Source: Methylophaga sp.
Lineage (GTDB): Bacteria > Pseudomonadota > Gammaproteobacteria > Nitrosococcales > Methylophagaceae
Direction of reading: 5' to 3'
DNA: 49,871 nt
Assembly (NCBI RefSeq): GCF_030651745.1
Contig: NZ_JAUSCC010000086.1
Coordinates: 1 to 49,871, forward strand
The translations under genes were made by a program, and so were the position numbers. Position 1 is the stretch's first letter. Every line of letters starts with the position of its first letter. The notes below the pieces were generated by a model. It was not told the origin of the DNA and did not search any database. It saw only the letters and a list, made by a program, of their open reading frames with translations. This document shows, piece by piece, positions 7,816 to 45,862 of this stretch.

Positions 7816-8538
7816 ATGGAAATGCCAACTTTGAATACAAGGCTTGATAGTCCAACACATGAAACGTATCAATTAAGTAGTGAAGATGCTGTTCATTGGC
7901 TGAAAAGTCTTGAAGGAGGATCTGTTGATTTAGTCATAACGGATCCTCCATACGAGTCTTTGGAAAAACATCGAAAAATCGGTACAACCACTAGACTAAA
8001 AAATAGCAAATCATCTAGTAACCCATGGTTTGAAATTTTTCCAAACTCAAGATTTGAAGAGCTTCTTATTGAAATTTATCGAGTACTCAAAAATAACAGT
8101 CACTTTTATCTTTTTTGTGATCAAGAAACGGCTTTCTTTATTAAACCAATAGCGGAGTCTGTTGGCTTTAAATTTTGGAAACCAATTATATGGGACAAAA
8201 TGGCGATTGGCATGGGATATCATTATCGAGCGAGATATGAATTTATTTTGTTTTTTGAAAAAGGCAAGAGGAAGCTCAATGATTTATCTATTCCAGACAT
8301 ATTGAGCGAAAAAAGGATTTGGAGAGGATACCCTACTGAGAAGCCGATAAATTTAGCTAAAACACTGATTCTTCAAAGCACTTCCGTCAGGCAAATGGTT
8401 ATTGATCCATTTTGTGGCGTCGGTTTTGTGGGATGTGCTTCTGTAGAATTAAATAGAATATTTAAAGGAAACGACATCAACTCTGACGCGGTCGGCATAA
8501 CTAAAAAAAGAATAGATACGATTAAACAAATTCTTTAA
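7816..8538 (+). CDS. Site-specific DNA methyltransferase (DNA methylase N4/N6, beta class)
   Basis: Transfers a methyl group from S-adenosylmethionine to an exocyclic amine of adenine or cytosine. Motif IV DPPY (VDLVITDPPYES, about residues 38-48) comes first and motif I DPFCGVGFVG (about residue 196) comes last, after the TEKPINLAKTLI motif X, which is the beta-class order. At 240 residues it is short, with a compact target-recognition region. There is no Shine-Dalgarno; the start is at 7816, or at 7822 (MPTLN). It is AT-rich relative to its neighbours, so probably acquired. Its 3' end overlaps the convergent gene by 17 bases. Recognition site unknown. It may be an orphan enzyme or part of a system with the two genes that follow. 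Confidence 0.88.
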   Translation: MEMPTLNTRLDSPTHETYQLSSEDAVHWLKSLEGGSVDLVITDPPYESLEKHRKIGTTTRLKNSKSSSNPWFEIFPNSRFEELLIEIYRVLKNNSHFYLFCDQETAFFIKPIAESVGFKFWKPIIWDKMAIGMGYHYRARYEFILFFEKGKRKLNDLSIPDILSEKRIWRGYPTEKPINLAKTLILQSTSVRQMVIDPFCGVGFVGCASVELNRIFKGNDINSDAVGITKKRIDTIKQIL

Positions 8539-9778
8539 ATTTTCTTACCCATGCTTTAAGCGTTTGTGCTCTTCTACTGCTTGTCGAATCACTAAGTCCA
8601 TTGCAGTTATGAATAAGGAATTCGGTGGCAGTTTCTTCGTTGATATCGACAATATTATTCACATTCTGATTTCTCATCCAAAGGAACCCACATTCTGTTT
8701 CCTCGAACTGCCGTTGAATAACGTTAATGTATTCTTGCTCGGTTGGAGAGTGAAGAGCCTTGGCACCGATAGGAGTAAGTTTCGAGTAATCATGGATTAA
8801 ACCTAATATTTCACATGCATCCCTGTAATAACTTACTTGTCGTGGAGCCATATTTAACAACTCAGATGTTACAAATCCGTTTTGCTCTAATATTTGTAGA
8901 TACAATTTAAGCCTTTCTAAGCTATCAGCTTGAGGCACCATTGTACTGTCTAAATATGTTCCAAGCCTATCGCTCACTTCTTCAATTAACTCTTCAACAT
9001 ATTGATGAGTAAGGTCTACGACTGGTTCGGTAGACTCTTCATCTATGAGTTGAATATTTAATTTATTAGATAATATGAGTGAAAATAATCTGTGAACAGT
9101 TCTTAGGTCTATATCTTTATTGTCTAATGCCTCAATAAACTCTTCTTTACTACTAATCTTTATTAAAGCTTCATATCCCTTTGTTTTGAACTCTTCTAGG
9201 TTATCGGCTTTAACTCTATATACGAATGAGCCAGCCAAGGCATCTTTTGCAAAAAATTGGGATGACAAGTCGAAATTTTTTAAATAGTTTTTGCAAAAAC
9301 GACTAAATGCTTCTGATACTTCATTTAATGTTTCGGAAACGATATCGTTGTTGTTATTTTTGGCTATGCGAATCCGATGAGTATGTTTGCGTTTCCCATC
9401 AACATTAATATTTTCACTAATGAAAATAGTATTATTGGGTAATAAAAAGGGTAGATTTTTTGATTTCTGCTCTTCTTGTAGTATCTGGCCGGTCTCAAGA
9501 TCCTCTTTCAGAACTAATATTCGAGATTGGCCAGTTTGTTTTATAACATCAATTATAGGAATGCTTTTTTGTTCAAGTTTATTGGCTCTCTCTGCAGATA
9601 CCGGAGTTATAAGCCATCTATCGTGTGTATCATCACAGCCCAGGCTATAACAAAAATAAATTTGATCATATTCGTTTAGTGCACTGAATATAATCGGTTG
9701 GTCATAGAAGCTATAAACATTGTGATAATACAATGTTCCGAAGCAACATCTCTTGAATTCAAGATCAGATTTTTTCAT
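8522..9778 (-). CDS. Uncharacterised protein, DUF6575-like N-terminus with a winged-helix-like C-terminus
   Basis: 418 residues. The N-terminal part (FGTLYYHNVYSFYDQPIIF, then DRWLITPVSAERANKLE) matches the pattern I recall for DUF6575. The middle is Glu/Asp/Leu-rich and helical. The C-terminal 130 residues (YYRDACEILGLI, LTPIGAKAL, SSRRAQTLKAWVRKF) look like the winged-helix-type domain seen in restriction-associated proteins; that is inference. I see no PD-(D/E)XK, HNH, GIY-YIG, Walker or protease motif. Its ATG overlaps the TGA of the upstream 129-residue gene (ATGA), so the two are translationally coupled. Strongly AT-rich. It is tail-to-tail with the methyltransferase, a common R-M layout, but nuclease function is unproven. 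Confidence 0.75.
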   Translation of the reverse strand: MKKSDLEFKRCCFGTLYYHNVYSFYDQPIIFSALNEYDQIYFCYSLGCDDTHDRWLITPVSAERANKLEQKSIPIIDVIKQTGQSRILVLKEDLETGQILQEEQKSKNLPFLLPNNTIFISENINVDGKRKHTHRIRIAKNNNNDIVSETLNEVSEAFSRFCKNYLKNFDLSSQFFAKDALAGSFVYRVKADNLEEFKTKGYEALIKISSKEEFIEALDNKDIDLRTVHRLFSLILSNKLNIQLIDEESTEPVVDLTHQYVEELIEEVSDRLGTYLDSTMVPQADSLERLKLYLQILEQNGFVTSELLNMAPRQVSYYRDACEILGLIHDYSKLTPIGAKALHSPTEQEYINVIQRQFEETECGFLWMRNQNVNNIVDINEETATEFLIHNCNGLSDSTSSRRAQTLKAWVRKFKEFV

Positions 9779-14260: not shown

Positions 14261-15607
14261 GTAACACGGTTTGTAAGCATGTTCGTCCTGACCCAATTTC
14301 ATCCGTTTTTCGCGGACAAATTTGTGTAACAGATCATCAATAGCGCGTAGCAGTTCGGGAGCACCGTTAATAACGTAAGGGCCATGTTTGGCCACTTCAC
14401 GAATACCAAAGGCTTTGACGTTGCCGGCGACAATCCCGGAAAACGCCGAACGTAAGTTGCTGGCCAGTTCATGGCGTGGCATATCGGGAAACAAACGTAA
14501 TGACGCCATGTTTTCATGAGTTGGAATAAATGGTTGTTGCAGCATCGGGTCGATATGCAGCTGCCAGTTAAAGTAATAGGCATCCTGTGATTCACGGCGA
14601 GCAGCATGGACGCTGTCTACTGACTCTCGGATGATATGACCAACGGTTGCCGGTTCACCAATCACTATTTGATACAGCTCAGCAATTTCATCACCCAGAC
14701 AACGACGCAAGAATTTATCCAGCGTATCGAAATATTCACGACAGGATTCCGGGCCGGCAAATACCAGCGGAATACCTTGTTTGTTTTCCGGGTGCAGTAA
14801 AATGCTCAGCAAATAGAAGATTTCTTCGACGGTGCCGACGCCACCGGGGAACACAATAAAACTATGACCTAAGCGGACAAAGGCTTCGAGGCGTTTTTCA
14901 ATATCCGGCATGATCACCAGTTCATTAACAATCGCATTCGGTGATTCAGAAGCAATAATGCCCGGTTCGCTGATACCAATATAACGACCGGTTTTAATTT
15001 GCTGTTTGGCGTGACCCACTGCCGCACCTTTCATCGGGCCTTTCATTGCACCGATACCGCAGCCGGTAATGATATCCAGATTACGCAGACCTAATTCGTA
15101 TCCGACATGTTTGGCGTAATTATATTCATCACGAGGAATGGAGTGACCGCCCCAGCACACCACCAGATTGGGTGTTGTATTTGGTTTGATGGCATCGGCA
15201 TTACGCAGGATCATAAATACGCTATCAGTGATCTGCTGAGATGTCGGCGAGGTTTGCTCTGCCAGAATTTTAAAATCGGTATAAACAATGTCACGTAGCG
15301 CTGATGACAAATGCTCCTGAATACCGCGAATAATCTTGTCGTCAACAAATGATTGTGCAGGCGCATTCTTGATTTCCAATACCACGCCACGCGATTGCGG
15401 CACCAGTTTGATATCAAAATCCGCATAGGTTTTAAAAATCTGTTCAGCATCATCCTGATGACTGTCGGTATTTAAGATTGCCAGCGCGCAATCGCGAAAC
15501 AAACGATGCAGATCTGCACTGGTGTTACTGATGCGTTGGATCTCTTCCTGTGACAGCAGGTTTAATGTTCTTAACGGACGAATCGTGGTGTATTCAATTT
15601 TGTTCAT
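14246..15607 (-). CDS. ppnN: Nucleotide 5'-monophosphate nucleosidase (YgdH/PpnN)
   Basis: Cleaves purine and pyrimidine monophosphates to free base and ribose 5-phosphate; the E. coli enzyme is controlled by (p)ppGpp. Visible are the Rossmann-like LOG-family core with CWGGHSIPRDEYNYAKHVGYELG, TGCGIGAMKGPMKGA and the signature FPGGVGTVEEIFYLL near residue 255, plus the flanking domains of the long PpnN form. At 453 residues the length matches E. coli YgdH (454). It is monocistronic, downstream of the guanidine operon terminator. Confidence 0.93.
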   Translation of the reverse strand: MNKIEYTTIRPLRTLNLLSQEEIQRISNTSADLHRLFRDCALAILNTDSHQDDAEQIFKTYADFDIKLVPQSRGVVLEIKNAPAQSFVDDKIIRGIQEHLSSALRDIVYTDFKILAEQTSPTSQQITDSVFMILRNADAIKPNTTPNLVVCWGGHSIPRDEYNYAKHVGYELGLRNLDIITGCGIGAMKGPMKGAAVGHAKQQIKTGRYIGISEPGIIASESPNAIVNELVIMPDIEKRLEAFVRLGHSFIVFPGGVGTVEEIFYLLSILLHPENKQGIPLVFAGPESCREYFDTLDKFLRRCLGDEIAELYQIVIGEPATVGHIIRESVDSVHAARRESQDAYYFNWQLHIDPMLQQPFIPTHENMASLRLFPDMPRHELASNLRSAFSGIVAGNVKAFGIREVAKHGPYVINGAPELLRAIDDLLHKFVREKRMKLGQDEHAYKPCYKLLD

Positions 15608-15712
15608 AGACTTCTAGTGATGAAAAAGACAAACACACATACTCCCATTGTTGGCAGTGGGAATCAATGTAAGAGTCGATGAGGGCTAGAACAACTGTTG
15701 GTTTTTACTGGT

Positions 15713-15747
15713 ACAAGAAAGCCGAGCCGGATTGATTCCGGCTTGGT
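15713..15747 (-). terminator. Terminator of the guanidine operon
   Basis: Read on the minus strand, arms 15737-15747 and 15721-15731 pair over 11 bp (two G-U) around a 5-base loop, followed by TTTCTT. It lies just after the allophanate hydrolase stop. Confidence 0.75.
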
Positions 15748-15769
15748 CTCTTTTGAAAATGAAGGTGTT

Positions 15770-17566
15770 TTATCGCTGCTGAACGTAAGCGCGCCAGCTT
15801 TTGAGATGAGTGATATCCGTTGCCTCTTGAATCGCATATGGCTCACAGATAAAGCCTGTATACCATTGCTGATCAGCCAGTTGAATCTTGCCAATGCCTA
15901 ATGGAGCAGGGATGCCTGCAACAAAAGAGCCGAAACTGGCGGTGGGCAATTCCCATAACTCGACTTCAATGGCTTCGCCATGCAGTTCATCGCGGATAAG
16001 TCCAGGACGCGCTGGCGGTCCGCCTGCCAGAGCATACAGACGATAACAGGGGGCAGTTTGGGTGGCACGGATAAGCTTGCCACCGCGTTCACTTAATTGC
16101 CAATTAAGTGGTTGTCCCTGTAGATGTGCGCCGCAGACGGCGACACGAATGCGATCCATTATTCCGGCATTTAAGCTGTGAGACTCTGGTAGTGGTGTAC
16201 CGGTCGCACCTAATGGCAGTTTCAAATATTGCTGCAACCGATTGGCATAAGATAGCAGGCGAGTGTCACTGAAGGCTCTGGAAAACAGGGTCACGCCAAA
16301 GGGCATTCCGTTTGAGGTAAAGCCCGCTGGAGCAGCCACTGCGCTGCAGTCGAGCAGATTCATAAAGTTGGTGTAATAACCCAGCTGGCTGTTGAGCGTA
16401 ATCGGATCAGCCAACACTTCGTCGATCTTGTAAATCGTCCCGGCAGTAGGCGTCAGAATAAAATCAACGTTTTCCAACATCGGTGAGACTTGCTGTTTGC
16501 AATGCTGCAGTTGGTATTCGGCGTTAAACAAATCCTCAGCTGAAGCTGTTTTATGGGTATCAAGAATTTGCTGTAAAACCGGCAACATGGCTTCGCGGTT
16601 GACAGAATCAGTCGCAATGCGTCGTTCGGCAACCCAAGGGCCTTCATATAACAATCTGGCCGCGGTCAGAAACGGTTCAAAATCAATTTTCTCACAGGTG
16701 CCGCCTAGCGATTTCAGTGTTTCAACGGTTTGGTAAAAGCCTGTTTCAATGTCTTTGTTACCAAAAAACTGCAATTGATCGGCTTGCGGGATGGCAAAAA
16801 GAAAGCTATCGGCTGCAATTTGGCCATAGTTGCGCCGATTGGTGTCCTTGTTCGGCCGGGAAAAGTCATCCTTGGCATCGTGGCTTGCGGTGACTTCGAA
16901 TACACGATTTGCATCATCGGTGGTCAGACTGAAAATAGAAATACAATCCAGACTTTTACAAGCCGGTATCAGCCCATGATTACTCAATAGGCCGCGTGAA
17001 GGTTTCAAGCCGATAAGATTATTAAAGGCGGCCGGTACCCGACCCGAACCGGCGGTATCCGTACCCAAAGAAAAACTCACCAATCCCAATGCCACCGCTA
17101 CTGCAGACCCCGAACTGGAACCGCCGGAAATATAGTCGGGATCAAAACTATTGTGGCAGACACCCCATTTGTCAGGAGAACGAACCCCGACCAGGCCGGT
17201 GGCAAACTGATCCATATTGGTTTTGCCAATCGGAATCGCTCCGGCAGCAATCAGTAATTCCACTACATGAGCGGATTGTTCGGCTTTGTAGCGAAAGGCT
17301 TCACAGCCAGCGGTGACATCGACACCGGCCAATTCAATATTGTCTTTGATCGCAAACGGAATGCCATACAACGGCAGATTGTCCGGCGAGTGGCCGATCA
17401 GTTTATCCAGATATGGCTGAATGGCTTCCCGCGATAACAGGCTTATCCAGATATTGCGATCGGCAAATGCGTTGGCACGGGCCAACACATCATCAATCAG
17501 TTTATGCGGCGATAGCCTGCCATCACGATAGGCTTTATGGATGGCATCAATGGTCATATCCATCAT
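15770..17566 (-). CDS. atzF: Allophanate hydrolase
   Basis: Cytoplasmic amidase-signature enzyme splitting allophanate to 2 NH3 and 2 CO2, the last step of this pathway. The catalytic Lys-Ser-Ser region is present: PFAIKDNIELAG (Lys), GGSSSGSAVAVALG and DTAGSGRVPAAFNN near residues 150-180. The C-terminal domain of about 130 residues (from IRVAVCGAHLQGQPLNW) is the AtzF accessory domain, giving about 598 residues. I start at the ATG at 17566 because GGAGG lies 4 bases upstream and it overlaps the carboxylase stop; ATGs at 17563 and 17557 are also possible. Last gene of the riboswitch-led operon. Confidence 0.93.
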   Translation of the reverse strand: MMDMTIDAIHKAYRDGRLSPHKLIDDVLARANAFADRNIWISLLSREAIQPYLDKLIGHSPDNLPLYGIPFAIKDNIELAGVDVTAGCEAFRYKAEQSAHVVELLIAAGAIPIGKTNMDQFATGLVGVRSPDKWGVCHNSFDPDYISGGSSSGSAVAVALGLVSFSLGTDTAGSGRVPAAFNNLIGLKPSRGLLSNHGLIPACKSLDCISIFSLTTDDANRVFEVTASHDAKDDFSRPNKDTNRRNYGQIAADSFLFAIPQADQLQFFGNKDIETGFYQTVETLKSLGGTCEKIDFEPFLTAARLLYEGPWVAERRIATDSVNREAMLPVLQQILDTHKTASAEDLFNAEYQLQHCKQQVSPMLENVDFILTPTAGTIYKIDEVLADPITLNSQLGYYTNFMNLLDCSAVAAPAGFTSNGMPFGVTLFSRAFSDTRLLSYANRLQQYLKLPLGATGTPLPESHSLNAGIMDRIRVAVCGAHLQGQPLNWQLSERGGKLIRATQTAPCYRLYALAGGPPARPGLIRDELHGEAIEVELWELPTASFGSFVAGIPAPLGIGKIQLADQQWYTGFICEPYAIQEATDITHLKSWRAYVQQR

Positions 17567-20500
17567 TGTGCCTCCCATTCGATGACTAATAGCCGATCAC
17601 CCATGCTGACCTGTGCGCCTGGCTGGCGTTTTATTTCGGTGACCGTGCCCGATTGCGTAGCGGTTATCTGGATTTCCATTTTCATGGCTTCAAGGATCAT
17701 CAGCACATCGCCTTCATTAACCGTTGTGCCGATTTCCACTTCCACCTTCCAGACACTGCAGTTAAGCGGGCTATCAACCGAAATGGCATTTTCCGGAAGC
17801 GGTGCGCTGGCTTCATCCACAATTTGCGGCTCACTGGCACTGTCAAAATGCAGCAGGCCATCACGTTTCCAGCGCTCAAGTTCCAGTTCAAAAGCCTGTT
17901 CCCGCTGGCGGGTAAAGCTGTCAATTGATTCACTGTGCTGCTCAATAAACTGGTTATAGCGCTTGAGATTGAATGTGGTTTGTTCAATCTTCAGTGGATA
18001 ATTGCCTTGTGGAAAATCACGACGGATTTGCATCAATTCATCATGGCTGACTTCATAAAACTTGATTTGATCAAAAAAGCGTAACAGCCACGGCTGGGTA
18101 AACTCAGTGGTTTTCAGATAACGGTTCCACATCTGCAGCGTCCGGCCAATAAACTGATAGCCGCCCGGTCCTTCCATGCCATAAACACAAAGATACGAAC
18201 CGCCAATGCCGACTGAGTTTTCAGCGGTCCAGGTACGGGCAGGATTATATTTGGTGGTGACCAGTCGGTGGCGTGGATCCATAGGTGTGGCAACTGGTGC
18301 GCCCAGATAAACATCACCCAGTCCCATCACCAGATAACTGGCTTCAAACACAATACGTTTGACTTCATCAACCGAGCTGAGCCCGTTAATGCGACGAATA
18401 AATTCGATATTATCCGGGCACCATGGTGCATTTGGGCGAACCGATTGCATGTATTTTTCGATGGCTTGCTGACAGGCTTCGTCATTCCAGGAAATTGGTA
18501 AATGTACGATACGTGCAGGCACATCCATATCTTCGATATTGCTGATTTCCTGTTCAGCTTTTTTGAGAATGCCGACCAGGGTTTCAAGCGAAATTTCCAG
18601 CCCATCATAGTGGATCTGCAATGAGCGGATCCCCGGCGTGAGTTCGCGTAAACCTTTGATATTTTGTTGCTGTAACCACAGCATTAACGCATGCACTTTA
18701 AAGCGCAGATTGATATCCAGAACCAGTTCGCCGTATTCGACCAGCAGATAATGATCACCTGCCAGCCGGTAGCAGACATCAATACCGGTTTCGGGGGAAA
18801 TCAGCGTGTCATAGATGGGTGAGCCAATTGGTGTTGGGACAACCTCGACAACTTGAGGACTTAGCTGATCAATGGATGCCAGCTGTGCCCGCTCCATGGC
18901 TCTGGCGGTATCAATCGACACCGGAATAAAGCGAACGCTGTCACCAGCCTTTAATTGGCCTAGTTTCCATAGTTCTGCGGTAATCACCGTGGCCGGACAA
19001 ACAAAACCGCCTAATGATGGACCATCGGGGCCAAGAATAATCGGCATATCGCCGGTGAAATCAATGGTGCCGACGGCATAGGCATTATCATGAATATTCG
19101 ATGGGTGTAATCCGGCTTCACCGCCTGTGCTTCTGGCCCATTCGGGGCGTGGGCCAATCAGTCGGATGCCGGTGCGGCTGGAGTTATAGTGGATTTTCCA
19201 GTCAGTTTCAAAAAAGGTGTTGATATCGTGTTCGGTGAAAAAATCAGGCGCGCCATGCGGACCGTAAATCACTTTAATATCCCAGTGAGAAGTGATCTCT
19301 GGTTTCACATCAACTGCGAGTTTTTTAACCTCAACCTTGGGTGTTTCACTCAATAAATGGATGACATCGCCGGTTTTCAGGGTGCGTCCGACATGGCCGC
19401 CAAATTGACCCAGTGTGAATGTGGAACGTGAACCCAGATAATTCGGACATTGAATGCCACCAGCCACCAACAGATAAGACCGAGCACCGCTGCCTTTTAT
19501 CTGGCCCAGCGTCAGTTTGTCGCCGCTATTCACTGCATGGATTTGCCAGCACTCAATCGGCTCATCATTGAGTTTGGCCTCGATGCTGGCACCGGTAATA
19601 ATAATCTGGCTGCGACAGTTAAAAACCAGTTCCGGGCCGCTTAAGGTGATTTCCAGTCCGGCGCAGTCTTCTGTATTGCCCATTAAACTATTTCCCAAAC
19701 GGAATGACCAGTTATCGTAAGGACCGGAAGGCGGAATGCCGATATCCCAGTAACCTTGTCTGCCCGGATAGTCCTGCACTGTGGTCATGGTACCCGGTGA
19801 TAACACGCTGAAGGTGCTGGGTTGATAGACAAAACTATCCAGATAACGGGTGGTGATGCTGGCGGATAAAAAGGCTGCATCATTGAGAATATGGCTGAGG
19901 TAGTCGGTATTGGTTTCGATGCCATAAATACTGATTTGTTGCAGTGCTGATAGCAGTTTGGCATGTGCTGATTCGCGGGTTTCAGCATAGCTGATGACTT
20001 TGGCAAGCATCGGATCAAAAAACGGCGAGATTTCGATACCCGGTTTAATCCAGTGATCGATACGCAAATCTGGCAGTTGTGGAAAAATTACTTCGGTTAA
20101 CAAACCGGCAGCAGGCTGAAATTTTTTGAACGGATCTTCAGCATATAAACGTACCTGTATTGCATGACCATGAGGCTCAGGTGCAACAGTGGGTAATGTA
20201 TCAGCCTGCGCGCCGACTTCAATCATCCAGCGAACCAGATCAACCTGATAGATGGCTTCGGTGACACCATGTTCTACCTGTAAGCGGGTATTTACTTCCA
20301 GAAAGTAAAACTGATGCGACTGAGCGTCGTAGACAAATTCCACGGTGCCGGCACTGCGATAATTGACGGCGGCCATTAACCTGACAGCCACCTCATGCAT
20401 CGCCTGTCTTACATTATCCGGAATATTTGGCGCAGGGGCTTCTTCAATAACTTTCTGATTACGTCGTTGGCTGGAACAGTCACGATCGCCCAAAGCCAAA

Positions 20501-21159
20501 ACATGTCCCTGACCATCGCCGATAATCTGAACTTCGATATGCCGGGCCTGGGTAATGAATTTTTCGATAAACACGCCATCATTGGAAAAGTTATTGGCAC
20601 CCAGCCGCTTCACCGAATTAAAGGCATTTTTCAGCTCATCTTCGTTATCACAACGGCTCATGCCGATACCGCCACCACCGGCAGTGGATTTCAACATCAC
20701 CGGATAACCGATGGTTTCAGCCATCACCAGGGCCTGATCAATATCCTGCAACAATTCTGAACCGGGTAATAATGGAACCTCATTCTGCTGCGCCAAAGCT
20801 CTGGCACTGTGTTTCAGGCCAAAGGCTTCCATCTGCTCTGCTGTCGGCCCGAGGAAAACCACATCATTGCCCTCGCAAAGCCTTGCAAAGTCAGGATTTT
20901 CACTTAAAAAGCCATAACCGGGATGAATGGCTTCTGCACCGGTTGCTCTGGCGATCTCCAGAATGCGTTGCTGATTCAGATAGGTGTCTGTGGCGCGGCC
21001 TTCGCCAAGTGAAAAAGCTTCATCAGCCATGCTGACATGCAATGAATCACGATCCGCTTCGGCATAAATGGCAACGGCCTGAATACCCATTTGGTGAAGG
21101 GTGCGAATAATTCGGGTGGCAATGGCCCCGCGGTTGGCAATTAAAATCTTCTTGAACAT
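17563..21159 (-). CDS. uca: Biotin-dependent urea/guanidine carboxylase
   Basis: 1198-residue, single-chain ATP-dependent carboxylase. Order: biotin carboxylase (KILIANRGAIATRI start, FIEKFI, EVNTRLQVEHGVTE near residue 290), then the carboxyltransferase half (KipI/KipA-like segments, PGRQGYWDIGIPPSGPYD near 470, and LGAPVATPMDPRHRL), and a C-terminal biotinyl domain with EAMKMEI about 30 residues from the end. The usual label is urea carboxylase. Homologues under guanidine-I riboswitches act on guanidine (established for the family), and UAAP1/2 neighbours support that here. Substrate choice is inferred from context. Confidence 0.93.
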   Translation of the reverse strand: MFKKILIANRGAIATRIIRTLHQMGIQAVAIYAEADRDSLHVSMADEAFSLGEGRATDTYLNQQRILEIARATGAEAIHPGYGFLSENPDFARLCEGNDVVFLGPTAEQMEAFGLKHSARALAQQNEVPLLPGSELLQDIDQALVMAETIGYPVMLKSTAGGGGIGMSRCDNEDELKNAFNSVKRLGANNFSNDGVFIEKFITQARHIEVQIIGDGQGHVLALGDRDCSSQRRNQKVIEEAPAPNIPDNVRQAMHEVAVRLMAAVNYRSAGTVEFVYDAQSHQFYFLEVNTRLQVEHGVTEAIYQVDLVRWMIEVGAQADTLPTVAPEPHGHAIQVRLYAEDPFKKFQPAAGLLTEVIFPQLPDLRIDHWIKPGIEISPFFDPMLAKVISYAETRESAHAKLLSALQQISIYGIETNTDYLSHILNDAAFLSASITTRYLDSFVYQPSTFSVLSPGTMTTVQDYPGRQGYWDIGIPPSGPYDNWSFRLGNSLMGNTEDCAGLEITLSGPELVFNCRSQIIITGASIEAKLNDEPIECWQIHAVNSGDKLTLGQIKGSGARSYLLVAGGIQCPNYLGSRSTFTLGQFGGHVGRTLKTGDVIHLLSETPKVEVKKLAVDVKPEITSHWDIKVIYGPHGAPDFFTEHDINTFFETDWKIHYNSSRTGIRLIGPRPEWARSTGGEAGLHPSNIHDNAYAVGTIDFTGDMPIILGPDGPSLGGFVCPATVITAELWKLGQLKAGDSVRFIPVSIDTARAMERAQLASIDQLSPQVVEVVPTPIGSPIYDTLISPETGIDVCYRLAGDHYLLVEYGELVLDINLRFKVHALMLWLQQQNIKGLRELTPGIRSLQIHYDGLEISLETLVGILKKAEQEISNIEDMDVPARIVHLPISWNDEACQQAIEKYMQSVRPNAPWCPDNIEFIRRINGLSSVDEVKRIVFEASYLVMGLGDVYLGAPVATPMDPRHRLVTTKYNPARTWTAENSVGIGGSYLCVYGMEGPGGYQFIGRTLQMWNRYLKTTEFTQPWLLRFFDQIKFYEVSHDELMQIRRDFPQGNYPLKIEQTTFNLKRYNQFIEQHSESIDSFTRQREQAFELELERWKRDGLLHFDSASEPQIVDEASAPLPENAISVDSPLNCSVWKVEVEIGTTVNEGDVLMILEAMKMEIQITATQSGTVTEIKRQPGAQVSMGDRLLVIEWEAQ

Positions 21160-21245
21160 GGTTTTATCATCTCAAGGCGTGGGTCGTCCCACATCAAACC
21201 GGCGCGTTTCAAGTCGTCTCAAAACACGTTATTGCTGTTGTTTGT

Positions 21246-21884
21246 TCAGTCCCAGATATAAAGGCCTATCGGTGTCGGGTTATAGGCGTTACAAGGGTTA
21301 TTCAGTTGCGGACAATTGGAAATCAACACGATGACATCCATTTCAGCCTGTAATTCAACGTATTTACCGGCTTCGGAAATACCATCGGCAAAGGTTAAAC
21401 CGCCCTGTTCGGTGACCGGTACATTCATGAAAAAGTTGATGTTATGGGTGATGTCGCGTTTGCTGATACCAAACTGTTCATTTTCAGCGACGGCCAGCAT
21501 CCAGCTGTCACGACAGGCATGCATGGTTTTTTTCTCCAGTGCATAACGCACAGTGTTGGACTCGGTAGCACAGGCTCCCCCCAACGTATCGTGACGTCCA
21601 CAAGTATCCGCAGCAATCGTTAGCATGGGATTGCCCATATTGGTGAGCAATGTGGTGCCAGCTGTCAGATAAATATTTTTCTGTTCACGGATGGTGTCCA
21701 TAGCACTGTACCGCTCGGATGGATCGGCAAGGCTGTAAAACAGGATATCGGCTGCCTGATTACCATGCAGATCGACGATGCGCAGGGTCTGGTTTTTCAG
21801 CAGTGGTTTCATCCAGTAGTCGCCGGCCAATACTTCTTCGTATCGGGCTGCCTGGTCGATGTTCAAATGACTTTCTTTAATCAC
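21246..21884 (-). CDS. Urea amidolyase-associated protein UAAP2 / carboxyguanidine deiminase subunit
   Basis: DUF1989-family protein, one of two paralogous subunits shown in related bacteria to deiminate carboxyguanidine to allophanate and ammonia. Core: [46 protein letters not shown], and [16 protein letters not shown] with conserved Cys, His and Asp. I start at the GTG at 21884 (VIKESHLNI): AAAGGAT lies just upstream, and the open frame to 21974 would overlap the previous gene by 68 bases. It is about 212 residues, the usual family length. It lies between UAAP1 and the carboxylase. Confidence 0.9.
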
Positions 21885-21906
21885 GATCTGTTTATCCTTT
21901 GAGCGT

Positions 21907-22647
21907 TTAATGATGTGCACACAGGTGATAGAGCCGGTTGTTTTCAAAACCGCGCCGGTTTTCAGCACAGGCATTCAGGCAAATATCATCTTCTGCTACC
22001 GCTGGTGAATTACGCAGTTGATAGGTAACCGGTTTTTTTGGGTAGCTTTCGGCGGTGCTCATCGGGTGAGGGCAGGTGTGCAGCATCACCAAAGTGTCCA
22101 TTTCAAAGCGTAAATCCAGGTAATCGCCGGCTTTACTGTGATTTTCCACAAAGCTCAGATTGCCGAGATCATCGGCTTTGATGCAGCTGAAAAGATTCAG
22201 GTTGGCTGCCATATCGCGTTTATTCAGCCCGTATTTGGCTAATTCGACTAAAAAGGCATGCTCGCCACTAATGGTTCGCTCATTGCGAAACTGCTGATAG
22301 TCTTTGATTCCCCAGGTGGCTTCCATCAGCGCATTGGTCAGGTTACCGCCGACAGTGTCGTGCCAGCCCAGAGTATCTTCGGTGATGGAGCAAAAGATGC
22401 GGCCCATATCGGAATACAAGCAGTGACCTTTGGTGAGTTTGAAGGTGTGCTGACACTTCAGCGTATCGGGTGCGTTATAGCGTTCCAGCGTATTCTCCGG
22501 GTTGTAAAACAGCATGCCGACATTGGCGCCGCCTTCTTTATCTATCAGTCGAAGGGTAGTGCCTTTGCGCATCAGCATAGACCAGTGGGTCCCACCTGGA
22601 AGGGTGTCCTGATATAAAACGTCTTTGTCTTTAATTTGTTCAATCAT
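21907..22647 (-). CDS. Urea amidolyase-associated protein UAAP1 / carboxyguanidine deiminase subunit
   Basis: 246-residue DUF1989 paralogue of the next gene and presumed partner subunit. Motifs: [52 protein letters not shown], then [19 protein letters not shown] with the conserved His-Asp. Known family role: carboxyguanidine deimination to allophanate (formerly called urea carboxylase-associated). It lies directly after the ABC ATPase gene (1-base gap) and 22 bases before UAAP2. Confidence 0.92.
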
Positions 22648-22648
22648 T

Positions 22649-23425
22649 TCATTTTGCCTGTTGTGTTATCAACGTATCTTGCATGTCATACATGGTGTGT
22701 TTTCGTGAACGTCCAACGGGGATGTCATAGGTGATGGATGCGCCATAGCGGTTAGGCTGATCGGGATCATGGCGCTGCTTATCAAACACCAGCAGTTGGG
22801 TGCCCAAAGAGAAGCCCTCGGACAGATCATGGGTGATCATAAAAATGGTGATATTGGTTTCACGCCAGATCTCCAGAATCAGCTCATGCATATCGGAGCG
22901 AATACCGGGATCCAATGCCCCAAAGGGTTCGTCCAGTAATAGGATCTGAGGTTTTTTGATTAATGCCTGGGCGATTGCCAACCTTTGCTGCATGCCGCCG
23001 GACAGTTCGCTTGGGTATTTGGTTAAGGCATGACCCAGGCCGACTTTTTCCAGCAGGGCGATGGCGCGTTCACGAATGGCTTTACGTTTTTTGCCAAAGC
23101 AGCGACCAAATAATGGCGATTCTTTGAACTCTTCACCAAGCATCACGTTTTCTACGACATTGAGATGGGAAAACACCGAATACTTCTGGAACACAATACC
23201 GCGATCGGCACCCGGTTCATTGGCGATCGGCGAACCATTCAATAACAGTTCGCCGCGAGTCGGCTGCTCAGTGCCCAACAGCATTTTCAGAAAGGTGGTC
23301 TTGCCACAACCGGATGCGCCGACCAGCGTGACAAACTCGCCAGCTTTAACATCCAGATTGATGTTTTCCAGCACAATGTTGTCGCCGTACTCTTTCCACA
23401 GGTTTTTGATCTGGATATCGTTCAT
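22649..23425 (-). CDS. ABC transporter ATP-binding protein (guanidine/urea-type operon)
   Basis: Cytoplasmic ATPase of a nitrate/taurine-type importer, 258 residues. Walker A GASGCGKTT near residue 37, Q-loop VFQKYSVFSHL, signature LSGGMQQRLAIAQAL, Walker B ILLLDEPFGALD and the switch His in FMITHDLSEG. I start at the ATG at 23425 (MNDIQIKNLWKEYG), which overlaps the permease stop as ATGA; the open frame upstream to 23632 is antisense-like and lies inside the permease gene. The substrate is inferred from the riboswitch to be guanidine. Confidence 0.94.
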   Translation of the reverse strand: MNDIQIKNLWKEYGDNIVLENINLDVKAGEFVTLVGASGCGKTTFLKMLLGTEQPTRGELLLNGSPIANEPGADRGIVFQKYSVFSHLNVVENVMLGEEFKESPLFGRCFGKKRKAIRERAIALLEKVGLGHALTKYPSELSGGMQQRLAIAQALIKKPQILLLDEPFGALDPGIRSDMHELILEIWRETNITIFMITHDLSEGFSLGTQLLVFDKQRHDPDQPNRYGASITYDIPVGRSRKHTMYDMQDTLITQQAK

Positions 23426-24249
23426 TTGCTTTCTCCCTGATCGGCCGAATGCCAGGGGAAGACGCTTTTTGATAAACGTCTTAACAGGAAGTCCATCAAG
23501 AATGCCAACAGCGTTATCCACACCACATAGGGCAAGATAATGTCCATCGACATATAACGCCTGACCAGGAAGATCCGATAGCCCAGGCCTTCGGTGGCCG
23601 AGATGGCTTCTGCTGCTATCAGAAATAACCACGCTGAGCCCAGACTCAAGCGAACCGCATCAATCAGTTTCGGTAATACCTGTGGTAATACCACACGTAG
23701 AATCAGTTGCCAGCTATTCGCTCCGAGGGTTTGGGCTTTAATGATGATTTCATGTGGTAATGCCATCACCCTGAGCTGCACATCACGGATCAGAAACGGT
23801 GTGATCCCAAGCACAATCAGCATCACTTTGGAGAGTTCGCCAAGACCAAAGATGATGAACAATATCGGCAGGATGGCTAACGGCGGTACCAGCGAAATAA
23901 TGGTGATGACCGGCGCTATTCCCGCTCTGACGAGCGGGATAATGCCGATCAGAATGCCTATAATCAGACCGCTCAGCGCACTGATTCCCACTCCAAGCCC
24001 TAAACGTTGCAAGCTGGCAGTGGTATCAGCCCATAACAAATACTCACCAGTCCGTTTACTGGGTTCAAATGCCATCGTTGTAATCGCATTCACAAACGAT
24101 TCAAACGACGGCATCAATTTATCATTTGGGTTGATTGCCAGCCGTTCATTTGAAAAGTAGCAATACACCATCGCAATCACAATGAATGGCAACAGGCCCA
24201 GAATGCACTTGCCGATCACCCCTGGTCGCTGGTTGATTATTCTCTTCAC
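23422..24249 (-). CDS. ABC transporter permease (guanidine/urea-type operon)
   Basis: Inner-membrane BPD_transp_1 permease of the TauC/SsuC kind: 275 residues with about six hydrophobic segments and the EAA loop region (VMALPHEIIIKAQTLGANSWQLILRVVLPQVLPKLID, near residue 170). GTG start at 24249 with GGGAGA 5 bases upstream. It overlaps the ATPase gene by 4 bases and lies 24 bases after the binding-protein gene, so the three form one importer. Confidence 0.92.
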   Translation of the reverse strand: MKRIINQRPGVIGKCILGLLPFIVIAMVYCYFSNERLAINPNDKLMPSFESFVNAITTMAFEPSKRTGEYLLWADTTASLQRLGLGVGISALSGLIIGILIGIIPLVRAGIAPVITIISLVPPLAILPILFIIFGLGELSKVMLIVLGITPFLIRDVQLRVMALPHEIIIKAQTLGANSWQLILRVVLPQVLPKLIDAVRLSLGSAWLFLIAAEAISATEGLGYRIFLVRRYMSMDIILPYVVWITLLAFLMDFLLRRLSKSVFPWHSADQGESK

Positions 24250-24273
24250 GAGAATCTCCCTGTATTACGAACC

Positions 24274-25341
24274 TTAGAGAGCGTTATCCGCGGCCATTTT
24301 CATAAAGCTGGAATCAAACCGGAGTTTGACGTTGCTCTCATTGCCTGCCACGCCACCATTGGGATAGGCAATACCGATAAAGTCAGCATCCATTGCGCCA
24401 TCACCGAGCAGACCGTGATCAAAAGAGAATTCAGTAATATGTTTCATGGTGGCAGGGAGTTGTTCACTTTCTGCAAAACTAACCGCTTCAGCAGCGGTGT
24501 AGAACATGTTGGTGGCATTTAGCTGAGCTTGATATCCAGCGAGATCAGTACCTGAGGCCTGAGCCATCATGGTTAACGCCTCTTCATCACCAGCCTGCAT
24601 TTTGGTCATAATTTCATACCAGGCGCCGGTTAAGGCTTTACCAAACGCCGGATTCGCTGCAAGGGTTTCAGTGTTGACCACTAATAAATCGATGATTTCG
24701 CCAGGGATATCAGATGAATCAAACACCATTGTAGTGTTTGGCAAAGCGGTGATTTCAGAGAGCAATGGATTCCAGGTTACTGTGGAGGTGACATCCGCAG
24801 CGTTAAACACACCTACCAGATCGGCATCAGAGGTGTTCACCACGGTGACATCACGTTCACTCAACTGCACGCTATCAAGCGCACGAGCCAACAGATAATG
24901 AGAAACCGATAATTCCACCAGATTGACGCGTTGACCTTTAATGTCGGTCAGTTTTTTGTCAGTTCCTTTCAGCACAACGCCATCGTTACCATTTGAAAAA
25001 TCACCGATGATCAACGCTGTGCTATCCACGCCACCTGCCGCCGGAATGGTTAACGCATCCATATTTGTCATGGTGCAACCATCAAACTGGCCAGCGGTAT
25101 ATTGATTGATGGATTCGATATAGTCGTTTATCTGTACCACATCGATTTCGATGCCGTATTTATCTGCCCACTTTTTGACGATCCCAGCGTTATCGGCATA
25201 ATCCCAAGGCATCCAACCAGCGTAGATGGTCCAGGCAATGCTGAATTTGGTTTTGGCTTCAGCATGTGCTGATAAAGGGGAAAAAAAAGCGGAAACAGAG
25301 AGCAGCAAAACGCTGCAAATGCGGAGAAAGGAATGCTTCAT
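24274..25341 (-). CDS. ABC transporter periplasmic substrate-binding protein (urea/guanidine type)
   Basis: Periplasmic NitT/TauT-type binding protein, first gene of the operon. A signal peptide is clear (KHSFLRICSVLLLSVSAFFSPLSAHA, cleavage after AHA). The mature part has WTIYAGWMPWDYADNAGIVKKWADKYGI, QFDGCTMTNMDALTIPAAGGVDSTALIIGDFSNGNDGVV, and the usual alpha/beta two-lobe length. I start at the ATG at 25341, with GTGAGGT 8 bases upstream; an in-frame GTG at 25356 overlaps that Shine-Dalgarno. The family is often annotated as putative urea ABC transporter; guanidine or a guanidino compound fits better under this riboswitch. Confidence 0.92.
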   Translation of the reverse strand: MKHSFLRICSVLLLSVSAFFSPLSAHAEAKTKFSIAWTIYAGWMPWDYADNAGIVKKWADKYGIEIDVVQINDYIESINQYTAGQFDGCTMTNMDALTIPAAGGVDSTALIIGDFSNGNDGVVLKGTDKKLTDIKGQRVNLVELSVSHYLLARALDSVQLSERDVTVVNTSDADLVGVFNAADVTSTVTWNPLLSEITALPNTTMVFDSSDIPGEIIDLLVVNTETLAANPAFGKALTGAWYEIMTKMQAGDEEALTMMAQASGTDLAGYQAQLNATNMFYTAAEAVSFAESEQLPATMKHITEFSFDHGLLGDGAMDADFIGIAYPNGGVAGNESNVKLRFDSSFMKMAADNAL

Positions 25342-25381
25342 TTGGTGATACCTCACAGCTTAAGTTATGAACACGGTGAAA

Positions 25382-25405
25382 GAGATGTTTTATTCAAACA
25401 ATCTC
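25382..25405 (-). promoter_or_regulatory. Possible expression-platform hairpin of the riboswitch
   Basis: On the RNA, 25405-25396 (GAGAUUGUUU) can pair with 25390-25382 (AAACAUCUC) with one bulge. The 5' arm uses the last bases of the aptamer, so ligand-bound aptamer and this hairpin exclude each other. Only three Us follow, so it would be a weak terminator. Mechanism inferred. Confidence 0.45.
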
Positions 25406-25505
25406 CCGGGCTTTTATCCCTCCGTGTAACCTTCGCTGTGAAGGTCGGTCACTCTCGGTCCAGACGTTATTTGCATAACCGGAACCCTAGAGACCTATTG
25501 CAGTT
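25400..25505 (-). ncRNA. Guanidine-I riboswitch (ykkC-yxkD leader)
   Basis: Read on the minus strand it contains, in order, the class hallmarks CUAGGGUUCCG (about 25492-25482), GGACCGAGAG (about 25463-25454; consensus GGUCCGAGAG), and ACACGGAGGGAUAAAAGCCC followed by GGGAGA (25426-25402), with an intervening hairpin (ACCUUCacagcGAAGGU). It is 60 bases upstream of the binding-protein gene. This aptamer class senses guanidine and turns on guanidine export or degradation genes. Confidence 0.93.
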
Positions 25506-25550
25506 CTTTCGGTGTATTAAAACACCTCTGACACGCTGACTGACATTAAA

Positions 25551-25600
25551 GCATCATTCAGGCCAGTTTAGTCTTATATAAATATATTTAGTTAAATCAA
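25551..25600 (-). promoter_or_regulatory. Candidate promoters of the guanidine operon
   Basis: Two overlapping candidates on the minus strand. A sigma70 type has TTGATT (25595-25600), 16 bases, TATAAG (25573-25578). A sigma54 type has TGGCCTG-N4-ATGCT with GG at 25563-25564 and GC at 25551-25552, exactly 10 bases apart. Nitrogen control through sigma54 would suit a nitrogen-scavenging operon. The rest of 25601-25740 is AT-rich with nothing else clear. Confidence 0.4.
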
Positions 25601-25740
25601 TTATTTAAAGCTTTTCCAGCTATTGCTAGGTATTTAGTTTTTGCACCTGAATTGTGCATGGTAGACCGATTATGCCCAATCATGGAGCGTTGTTTCAGTG
25701 ATGAAACCAAGCATTGATCGTTGTCTGGTCATTTCCTTTC

Positions 25741-41799: not shown

Positions 41800-42909
41800 T
41801 CAAGCTGAGACAGATAAATTTTCAATCAGTTTGTTTGCAAAGTCATGACCATCAAAATGATCTGGATCCGTATGCTCTAGCAATAAATTGCACAGGATCT
41901 CACCTGGTTCGATAATGCTGTCTGTTGCCGGCCGATCAAAACAATAATCTGGCCAGGCAAAATCTGCCGGAATAGTGATCTTGTGTGGTGCAAAACAAAA
42001 CCATAACAGTTGTTTTCTGCTGGCAAGTTGCATTGGTATCTCCGGCAGTTGACCGGCTGAAGTCATCAGTTGCCAACTGATGATCGGTAAATCTTCGGGG
42101 AGTAACTGGCAGGATGCGGTGGGGCGCGGATTTATCTCCAGCAGGAAAATCTCTCCTGATGAATTGATCATGAAGTCCAATGACATTAACCCCCCTAAAT
42201 CAAGATGTCGGCTAAGCTTTTGCAAAGCATGATGAATAGTTTGTTGTTGTTTATCATCAAGCAGCAAATTGTTGCTAATGGCTTGCAAAGTGAAATCATT
42301 TAAAGCGGGATTTACAGTAAATTGTTGGTTGATAAGTAAGACGTGAAAAGCATTTCCGCTTGCCAGAAATAATACTGAAGCACTGATGCCATCTATTTGC
42401 TGTTGAAAGTAAACGTCAGAGTGCTTCGAGATCGAGTCTGCATCGGCGATGTGGGTTCCGCCCCAGGCGGCAGCAGATTTTGCTAACCAGTTTCCTGTGA
42501 ATGGTTGGTCTTTGGTAAATCGGGTTGAGGGATACGGCAATGCTAACCTGTCCAGCAAGGCTATCCATTTTGTAGGTGTCGATAGCTGTTCAATACTGGT
42601 ATAAGACGGACCAGCGTAACGGATATGGTTTGGTAGTTCCGACAGCAACGGATAGAGACGTTCGATCCCGGTCCCAAAGATTAAGCTGCATGGTTGAGCA
42701 TCGCTTAGACGAATGATCGCCTGCAGCCATAAATGCTGGTTTGCTTTATTTGCTTCGGGGAGTTTGAGATAGCGATCAGCGACCTGAAGGGTATCAAGGT
42801 CACCATAGCAATCAGCAACACGGACAAGATAGCCTTCCCGTGCTGCTGATTGCGCCAGCATTCGTCCACTTTGAGCGACGACTAACAGGAGCTTGGGACG
42901 TTCAAACAT
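41800..42909 (-). CDS. ATP-grasp protein of the methanopterin cluster
   Basis: 369 residues. An N-terminal Rossmann-like part (PKLLLVVAQSGRMLAQSAAREGYLVRVAD) is followed by an ATP-grasp fold (LAKSAAAWGGTHIAD, YFQQQIDGISASVLFLASGNA, LGGLMSLDFMINSSGEIFLLEINPRPTAS, with the metal-binding Asp/Glu/Asn). Its position after mtdB and beta-RFAP synthase matches the ATP-grasp gene (orf17 type) of methylotroph tetrahydromethanopterin clusters, needed for cofactor synthesis, perhaps for a side-chain ligation. The exact reaction is not known to me. Last gene of the cluster. Confidence 0.82.
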   Translation of the reverse strand: MFERPKLLLVVAQSGRMLAQSAAREGYLVRVADCYGDLDTLQVADRYLKLPEANKANQHLWLQAIIRLSDAQPCSLIFGTGIERLYPLLSELPNHIRYAGPSYTSIEQLSTPTKWIALLDRLALPYPSTRFTKDQPFTGNWLAKSAAAWGGTHIADADSISKHSDVYFQQQIDGISASVLFLASGNAFHVLLINQQFTVNPALNDFTLQAISNNLLLDDKQQQTIHHALQKLSRHLDLGGLMSLDFMINSSGEIFLLEINPRPTASCQLLPEDLPIISWQLMTSAGQLPEIPMQLASRKQLLWFCFAPHKITIPADFAWPDYCFDRPATDSIIEPGEILCNLLLEHTDPDHFDGHDFANKLIENLSVSA

Positions 42910-42928
42910 GTCCGGCTCCTATGGGGTT

Positions 42929-43834
42929 TTAAACCAGTTTACGCGCACCTTCAAAAGCATTACGGAAATCCAGATAGACCGGTTTATCACTTTCCAATGT
43001 TTCTCTGAGTAAGGCCTGTTGCAGTTTGTACTTCACATTGCCGACAGCCAGTGCACCGATACCTACTGCTTTAGGGCATTGTGGAGCAAATTTAAGTGGT
43101 TCACCGTTATGCATCAGCTCGACGCCTTCGATTCCCAACGGTGCAACCGCGTTGACGTCACCAGCCACTTTTAATTGTTTGGCATCTTCAAGTACAGAAG
43201 CATTCAAAACTTGAACACCTGCTTTTGCAGTACAGAAAACCACATCGGCATCACTTAACAGACGAGCTTTATCAGCATCGGATGCTGCAGTCGTGGCACG
43301 TAAATTTACGCCATAACGTTTACGTGCTTCGTCAGAAAATTGCAGCGCAGTATCTAATGAAAAGTGATCAACAATGGTTGTCTGCGCGCCTTGCAGTGCG
43401 GCAATAACAGCTGTGGCTAAGCCCACAGGACCGGTTCCACCAAAAACGACGGCTTTGCAGCCTTTGTAATCCTGATTGAAATGTTTTTTGAGTTCACGCT
43501 CAACACAGGCTACCAGAGCTGCTGCCGTGGTAAATGCACCACTTGGGTCAGCAAATACCGGGATTTCAAAAGGAGGAACCATGGCCGATTTGGCGGCATC
43601 AAGCATATCCATCGCCAGACCAATATCTCGTCCACCGATAAAAAGACCGGTTTTTTTCACGCCAGCAGGACCGCGAGAGAAAATAGCATCTTGCGTTAAT
43701 CCCGCTACTTCATTCAACTCAACATTGTTGTACGGCATGATGATGTCATAACCGGCATCCAGCGCCATGTTGATATCAAACGGACTGTTTTGCTTCATAG
43801 GATTGAGCATATGAATGATGGAACGCTTGGACAT
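42929..43834 (-). CDS. mtdB: Methylene-tetrahydromethanopterin dehydrogenase (MtdB type)
   Basis: NAD(P)-dependent oxidation of methylene-H4MPT to methenyl-H4MPT in formaldehyde oxidation; cytoplasmic. N-terminus SIIHMLNPMKQNSPFDINMALDAGYD, then AIFSRGPAGVKKTGLFIGGRDIGLAMDML, and the nucleotide-binding VFGGTGPVGLATAVIAAL near residue 131. 301 residues, normal for MtdB. It follows beta-RFAP synthase by one base and precedes the ATP-grasp gene by 19 bases. Confidence 0.88.
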   Translation of the reverse strand: MSKRSIIHMLNPMKQNSPFDINMALDAGYDIIMPYNNVELNEVAGLTQDAIFSRGPAGVKKTGLFIGGRDIGLAMDMLDAAKSAMVPPFEIPVFADPSGAFTTAAALVACVERELKKHFNQDYKGCKAVVFGGTGPVGLATAVIAALQGAQTTIVDHFSLDTALQFSDEARKRYGVNLRATTAASDADKARLLSDADVVFCTAKAGVQVLNASVLEDAKQLKVAGDVNAVAPLGIEGVELMHNGEPLKFAPQCPKAVGIGALAVGNVKYKLQQALLRETLESDKPVYLDFRNAFEGARKLV

Positions 43835-43835
43835 A

Positions 43836-45760: not shown

Positions 45761-45862
45761 CATGTTCTCCGGCATTAAGCATGGCTTGATGGGTGATAGG
45801 TTGACGCTGGATTTTACCCTATGTTGTTTGTGTGAGGAAATTAAACTGCGTCAGTGTTTCGC

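What the first reader, a model, noticed from the sequence alone, without database searches (positions are those of the whole stretch)
15713..25600. Complete guanidine uptake-and-degradation operon behind a guanidine-I riboswitch, in a probable methylotroph
The ykkC aptamer hallmarks are directly visible, followed on one strand by binding protein, permease, ATPase, UAAP1, UAAP2, carboxylase and allophanate hydrolase with tight overlaps, ending at a terminator. From known family roles, UAAP1/2 act as carboxyguanidine deiminase, so the 'urea carboxylase' here is probably a guanidine carboxylase and the ABC system a guanidine importer. All functions needed from uptake to ammonia sit in one riboswitch-controlled unit.
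Basis: partly seen in the sequence, partly recalled or inferred. Interest (0 to 1): 0.72.

Follow-up and report, generated by a model that had tools for sequence, protein, structure and literature searches.

The report
Two-riboswitch guanidine-degradation operon in Methylophaga

Summary
The finding is real and mostly read correctly. On the minus strand a guanidine-I riboswitch (25501-25401; 91.1 bits, cut-off 63) precedes binding protein, permease, ATPase, CgdA, CgdB, carboxylase and allophanate hydrolase, ending at a terminator-like hairpin. The carboxylase has Asp where the yeast urea enzyme has Asn (K. lactis 1330), the published guanidine-carboxylase signature. The closest relatives are Methylophaga (SBP 92, 90 and 81% identical). 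The operon type is known.

Two additions. (1) The 86-nt gap before the carboxylase holds a guanidine-II riboswitch (21225-21179; 30.0 bits, cut-off 32). The same gap carries the motif in 47 of 59 cases, window included, with covarying stems. The two-switch layout is published for Vreelandella. (2) The guanidine-I leader shows no terminator-like site. Instead the aptamer's P2 strand and loop can pair with the Shine-Dalgarno region. Three loop variants in the genus each have the matching change beside the SD (14 of 16 leaders). So guanidine-I is probably translational here, unlike its usual transcriptional mode. Beyond the genus this holds for few leaders. Ligand response, substrate and transport are inferred, not assayed.

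The parts
25581..25609 (-). sigma-70-like promoter candidate upstream of the leader (weak)
   Evidence: 9 of 12 consensus matches; 3 such sites found in the region against a shuffle mean of 1.2, so weak
25401..25501 (-). guanidine-I (ykkC) riboswitch aptamer
   Evidence: RF00442, 91.1 bits, gathering 63
25435..25445 (-). P2 5' strand and loop of the aptamer, proposed anti-Shine-Dalgarno
   Evidence: pairs with 25350-25359 in the minimum-energy fold; loop/SD co-variation in the genus
25350..25359 (-). Shine-Dalgarno region of the SBP gene, proposed to be masked without ligand
   Evidence: position; unpaired probability 0.0 for 6 of 7 SD bases in the unconstrained ensemble
24274..25341 (-). periplasmic binding protein, putative guanidine importer
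   Evidence: TIGR03427, 550 bits, cut-off 333.9
23422..24249 (-). ABC permease
   Evidence: PF00528; TauC/SsuC-like matches below equivalog cut-offs
22649..23425 (-). ABC ATPase
   Evidence: PF00005; homologues align from the ATG at 23425
21907..22647 (-). CgdA (UAAP1), carboxyguanidine deiminase subunit
   Evidence: TIGR03425, 320 bits, cut-off 206; PF09347
21246..21884 (-). CgdB (UAAP2), carboxyguanidine deiminase subunit, GTG start
   Evidence: TIGR03424, 319 bits, cut-off 285; start from homologue alignments
   Evidence: RF01068, 30.0 bits, gathering 32, E 1e-4 for 151 nt; conserved in relatives
17563..21159 (-). guanidine carboxylase (annotated kind: urea carboxylase)
   Evidence: TIGR02712, 1840 bits; Asp at residues 700 and 949 = K. 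lactis 1330 and 1584
15770..17578 (-). allophanate hydrolase AtzF
   Evidence: TIGR02713, 759 bits, cut-off 511; Amidase and AH_C domains
15725..15743 (-). intrinsic-terminator-like hairpin closing the operon
   Evidence: pattern scan

Best explanation
It is a guanidine-assimilation operon of a Methylophaga species with two guanidine sensors. Guanidine is imported by the ABC system, carboxylated with ATP and bicarbonate by the biotin enzyme, deiminated by CgdAB to allophanate, and cut by AtzF to ammonia and CO2. Guanidine-I in the 5' leader gates the importer and CgdAB. Guanidine-II, just before the carboxylase start, gates carboxylase translation, so the costly ATP-using enzyme is made only when guanidine is really there. 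In this genus guanidine-I most likely acts on translation: without ligand the P2 strand and loop mask the SBP Shine-Dalgarno; with ligand P2 closes and frees it. Shown by sequence: both aptamers, gene set, signature residues, co-varying pairings. Inferred: substrate, transport, direction of switching.
For: Gd-I 91.1 bits. Gd-II 30.0 bits in the CgdB-carboxylase gap; two ACGR hairpins in 47 of 59 such gaps against 3 of 11800 mononucleotide shuffles and 49 of 11600 random stretches of the same loci; stems co-vary in 45 relatives chosen on the loops alone; Gd-II in front of the carboxylase in 10 of 24 genomes of the genus, all 10 with Gd-I. Carboxylase Asp at the 1330 and 1584 positions. Urease alpha is also present in 10 of the 13 Gd-I genomes, so a second urea route is not needed there. 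Anti-SD: minimum-energy fold pairs P2 with the SD (z -3.78, 0 of 200 shuffles); loop variants AGC, AGT, TGA are matched by GCT, ACT, TCA in 14 of 16 leaders; window P2-tail duplex is reached by 0.7% of stretches of the window itself; no terminator-like site in the leader.
Against: Gd-II scores under Rfam's gathering cut-off, and 12 of 59 gaps lack it; 3 of 13 Gd-I genomes show no Gd-II. The SBP's solved relatives bind nitrate, taurine or sulfonates, which are anions. Anti-SD: 2 of 16 leaders fail; only three variants, many leaders being near-identical; 28 of 45 leaders, mostly outside the genus, exceed 0.05, and of five genus leaders run apart only 1 does not. With P2 and P3 forced, the SD is only partly freed (0.02-0.46 unpaired) and the masked fold is 7.1 kcal/mol better without ligand.
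Confidence: 0.87

Rival explanations
1. A urea-amidolyase operon: the carboxylase acts on urea and the transporter imports urea, as the family names say.
For: The family models used here are named urea carboxylase and urea ABC transporter. One riboswitch-type relative, Tepidiphilus L068, has Asn at the 1330 column.
Against: Asp at the 1330 column in the window and in 57 of 59 aligned rows (1 Asn, 1 gap); two guanidine riboswitches; CgdA and CgdB present; urease also encoded in 10 of 13 Gd-I genomes of the genus.
Confidence: 0.05
2. Guanidine-I here is an ordinary transcriptional switch; the GGGAGAT...ATCTC hairpin (25407-25382) is the terminator and the P2-SD complementarity is incidental, since P2's 3' strand simply resembles an SD.
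For: Guanidine-I usually works by a terminator (passages of PMC12186494; PMC12508155). A hairpin directly follows the aptamer in the window and in the two larger Methylophaga leader groups. Most leaders outside the genus lack significant P2-SD pairing.
Against: The hairpin is followed by TTTC or TTGC, not a T run, and the terminator scan finds none there. Compensatory changes in the loop lie outside the SD-like part.
Confidence: 0.3
3. The operon serves detoxification rather than nitrogen supply.
For: Other genomes of the genus put Gd-II before a SugE-type exporter, a detoxification role.
Against: A dedicated binding-protein importer heads the operon and would bring guanidine in.
Confidence: 0.08

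Closest known systems
Vreelandella boliviensis gca operon (PMC12508155; passages seen)
   Same: Gd-I before the operon, Gd-II between cgdB and gca, ABC importer, cgdA/B, gca and atzF
   Different: V. boliviensis adds mgdH and mgdL between gca and atzF; here gca and atzF overlap, so there is no room for them. Its Gd-I is presumed transcriptional; here a translational platform is indicated
Enterobacterial guanidine operons of Raoultella, Erwinia and Klebsiella (PMC12186494; passages seen)
   Same: Gd-I before importer and deiminase genes, Gd-II before carboxylase and allophanate hydrolase
   Different: Different host lineage; no difference in layout was found
Pseudomonas syringae DC3000 guanidine carboxylase pathway (passages of PMC11410670)
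   Same: Carboxylase, CgdAB, allophanate hydrolase and ABC importer
   Different: The passages seen show only Gd-I; detailed comparison not made
K. lactis urea amidolyase (PDB 5i8i, 3va7)
   Same: Carboxylase domain homologous over the full length
   Different: Asn at 1330 there, Asp here; there the hydrolase is fused, here it is a separate gene

Membership tests
Guanidine-I riboswitch (RF00442) | covariance-model score above the curated cut-off | tested here: met
   91.1 bits against 63
Guanidine-I riboswitch (RF00442) | usual transcriptional (terminator) expression platform | tested here: not met
   no terminator-like site in the leader by pattern scan; described as usual, not defining
Guanidine-I riboswitch (RF00442) | binds guanidine and switches expression | not testable with these tools
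   needs in-line probing and reporters
Guanidine-II riboswitch (RF01068) | covariance-model score above the curated cut-off | tested here: inconclusive
   30.0 bits against 32 for the window; orthologous elements of the genus reach 31.7-44.9 bits in front of the carboxylase
Guanidine-II riboswitch (RF01068) | two hairpins with ACGR loops, stems supported by covariation | tested here: met
   window has both, all 14 scored stem positions standard pairs; covariation in 45 relatives
Guanidine carboxylase | TIGR02712 architecture with Asp at K. lactis 1330 and 1584 | tested here: met
Guanidine carboxylase | prefers guanidine to urea | not testable with these tools
   enzyme assay needed
Carboxyguanidine deiminase CgdAB | one UAAP1 and one UAAP2 protein of the DUF1989 family | tested here: met
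   both over the curated cut-off, PF09347
Guanidine ABC importer | binding protein binds guanidine | not testable with these tools
   family match TIGR03427 is named for urea; solved relatives bind anions

The most novel reading that the evidence does not exclude
In Methylophaga the guanidine-I aptamer is its own expression platform: its P2 5' strand and loop serve as the anti-Shine-Dalgarno, so ligand binding frees the ribosome site directly. Loop and SD-flanking bases evolve together, and the whole operon would be run by two translational guanidine switches in series. Scattered leaders elsewhere (Tolumonas, Vibrio, Solimonas and others) may use the same device.
Probability: 0.55. Interest if true: 0.45.

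Novelty: new member of a known kind. Interest (0 to 1): 0.34.

Why it matters
It extends guanidine assimilation to marine and haloalkaline-type methylotrophs of the genus Methylophaga, for which the one library search made here found no paper on guanidine use (listing only). It shows that the internal guanidine-II switch before the carboxylase is the rule rather than the exception among the relatives examined (47 of 59 gaps) and that Rfam's cut-off can hide it. The P2/Shine-Dalgarno pairing, if real, would be a compact translational form of a riboswitch class that is mostly described as transcriptional, and it can be tested with simple reporters.

Tried and rejected
Urea rather than guanidine as substrate: rejected on the Asp/Asn position and context. 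An intrinsic terminator in the guanidine-I leader: scan negative. General use of the P2-SD pairing across all relatives: not borne out. Of 45 leaders scored against stretches of their own locus or window, 17 were at or below 0.05, 11 of them Methylophaga (several near-identical), and 28 were above. In that call a changed regular expression dropped five genus leaders; run apart with a slightly shorter P2 piece they gave 0.057, 0.04, 0.083, 0.527 and 0.057. Leaders with P2 over 40 nt were also left out (one search used 48 of 67), and 24 of 81 leaders lacked the regex anchors. A permutation of P2 and tail partners over 35 distinct P2 pieces gave a matched mean of -11.0 against -9.23 (sd 0.39), 0 of 5000 permutations as low; this does not control for shared base composition, so I weigh it little. 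Binding-protein conservation (26 of 80 loci aligned) gave many invariant aromatic and acidic residues but no test of the ligand. No structure prediction was run. The founding papers on CgdAB could not be read: PMC8184117 is not held.

Full report
OBSERVATION. The described features are in the sequence. Rfam at gathering threshold finds one element in the whole window, guanidine-I at 25501-25401 on the minus strand, 91.1 bits against a cut-off of 63. Downstream on that strand lie SBP 25341-24274, permease 24249-23422, ATPase 23425-22649, CgdA/UAAP1 22647-21907, CgdB/UAAP2 21884-21246, carboxylase 21159-17563 and AtzF 17578-15770 (ORFs; families; starts by homologue alignment). A terminator-like hairpin follows at 15743-15725. 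The promoter candidate at 25609-25581 is weak. Neighbours are ppnN downstream and ssb upstream, unrelated to guanidine.

WHAT THE CARBOXYLASE IS. PMC11410670 (methods passage) requires Asp at K. lactis 1584 and separates guanidine from urea carboxylases by Asp at 1330. Counting along the alignment to the K. lactis chain 5i8i_A, K. lactis has Asn at 1330 and the window protein Asp; both have Asp at 1584. In an alignment of the window and 58 relatives the 1330 column is Asp in 57 of 59 rows, Asn in one (Tepidiphilus, L068) and a gap in one; the 1584 column is Asp in 57 and a gap in two. The gaps are truncated contigs.

HOST. The window's own genome is not held. The window also holds beta-RFAP synthase, two proteins with the methylene-tetrahydromethanopterin dehydrogenase N-terminal domain and a quinoprotein-relay pair, in keeping with methylotrophy.

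THE SECOND RIBOSWITCH. The 86-nt CgdB-carboxylase gap holds two hairpins with ACGA loops. Searched alone, with permissive filters, it matches guanidine-II (RF01068) over the full model at 30.0 bits, E 1e-4 for 151 nt, cut-off 32. The region folds with z -2.72 (3 of 200 shuffles as good). In the window plus 58 loci with CgdB and carboxylase adjacent, 47 of 59 gaps hold two ACGR hairpins of at least 4 pairs, against 3 of 11800 mononucleotide shuffles and 49 of 11600 random stretches of the same loci. Of the 12 without, 8 gaps are 8-33 nt long. Choosing on the loops alone gives 46 of 59 gaps; in the 45 relatives every variable stem position is paired more often than in shuffles (P1 positions 2-7 and P2 positions 3-6: 0 of 500 shuffles reach it; P1 position 8: 12 of 500). 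Related sequences are not independent, so these numbers overstate. Of 24 genomes of the genus, 17 have guanidine-II (15 over the cut-off; 19 elements); 10 elements precede the carboxylase, in 10 genomes that all have guanidine-I. Three of the 13 guanidine-I genomes show no guanidine-II: G004, G012 and G015, of which G012 and G015 are small assemblies.

HOW GUANIDINE-I ACTS HERE. Guanidine-I usually works by a terminator (legend in PMC12186494), and that is presumed for V. boliviensis (PMC12508155). Here no terminator-like site lies between aptamer and start codon. The minimum-energy fold (z -3.78, 0 of 200 shuffles) pairs the P2 5' strand and loop, ACCUUCACAGC (25445-25435), with GCUGUGAGGU (25359-25350), which contains the Shine-Dalgarno. 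Over the 16 leaders (window plus 15 elements of 13 genomes) the three loop bases and the three bases before GUGAG are AGC/GCU in 5, AGU/ACU in 6, UGA/UCA in 3, all complementary, and UGA/AAA in 2, which fail at two of three positions. So three matched variants exist, although leaders within a variant are near-identical. Control: 0.7% of stretches of the window pair with its P2 as well as the tail does, and 0 of 300 tail shuffles. Across the 45 leaders scored, 17 reach 0.05 or less, 11 of them Methylophaga; the others are L009, L020, L053, L063, L064 and L073. The remaining 28 do not, and of five genus leaders scored apart only one does (0.04; the rest 0.057, 0.057, 0.083 and 0.527). In silico the SD is masked in the free ensemble and partly open (0.02-0.46 unpaired) when P2 and P3 are forced, at a cost of 7.1 kcal/mol. 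I read this as good support for an anti-SD platform in this genus, and no support for a general rule.

MECHANISM. Chemistry from established work as given in passages of PMC12186494 and PMC11410670: guanidine is carboxylated at the cost of ATP, carboxyguanidine is deiminated to allophanate, and allophanate is hydrolysed to two ammonia. Import by the ABC system is inferred. The SBP matches TIGR03427; its nearest solved relatives are nitrate, taurine and sulfonate binders at E about 1e-4, so the ligand cannot be read from them. Urease alpha is found in 13 of 24 genomes of the genus and in 10 of the 13 with guanidine-I, which makes a second urea pathway unlikely to be the point.

KNOWN OR NEW. 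The two-switch layout, guanidine-II between cgdB and gca included, is described for V. boliviensis and said there to occur in several other bacteria, and a like layout for Enterobacteria. The operon is therefore a new member of a known kind. I found no description of P2 as anti-SD in guanidine-I in the listings or in the passages read of PMC7266159, PMC12186494 and PMC12508155; this is no exhaustive search, and the primary papers of 2020 and 2021 were not read (one look-up failed; the other was not tried).

Noticed in passing
L099, L102, L103, L111 and other guanidine-II loci of the genus: In genomes of the genus without the operon, guanidine-II stands before a SugE-type SMR exporter instead (4 of 4 ORFs scanned are over the SugE cut-off; further ones judged by eye). 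Only G022 shows both an exporter element and the operon, which looks like a degrade-or-export split.
   Followed up: partly
L068 (Tepidiphilus succinatimandens), carboxylase 14323-17913: The carboxylase has the urea-type Asn at the 1330 column although its gap carries a guanidine-II motif and its nearest relatives in the tree (Pseudomonas L043, L051, L059) have Asp: a possible natural switch of substrate.
   Followed up: partly
G012 and G014 (L089, L091, L097, L098): Two genomes of the genus carry two guanidine-I elements each, one before the binding-protein gene and one before the permease gene.
   Followed up: no
L044, L054, L058, L060, L062, L069, L074, L079: CgdB-carboxylase gaps of only 8-33 nt, many in Magnetospirillum and other Alphaproteobacteria, leave no room for guanidine-II: the internal switch is absent in these.
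   Followed up: no
window 41800-45775: Cluster of ATP-grasp protein, beta-RFAP synthase and two paralogues with the Mpt_N domain of methylene-tetrahydromethanopterin dehydrogenase.
   Followed up: no
window 7816-9778: DNA methylase (PF01555) next to a convergent gene with DUF6575 and DUF7226 domains, possibly a restriction or defence pair.
   Followed up: no
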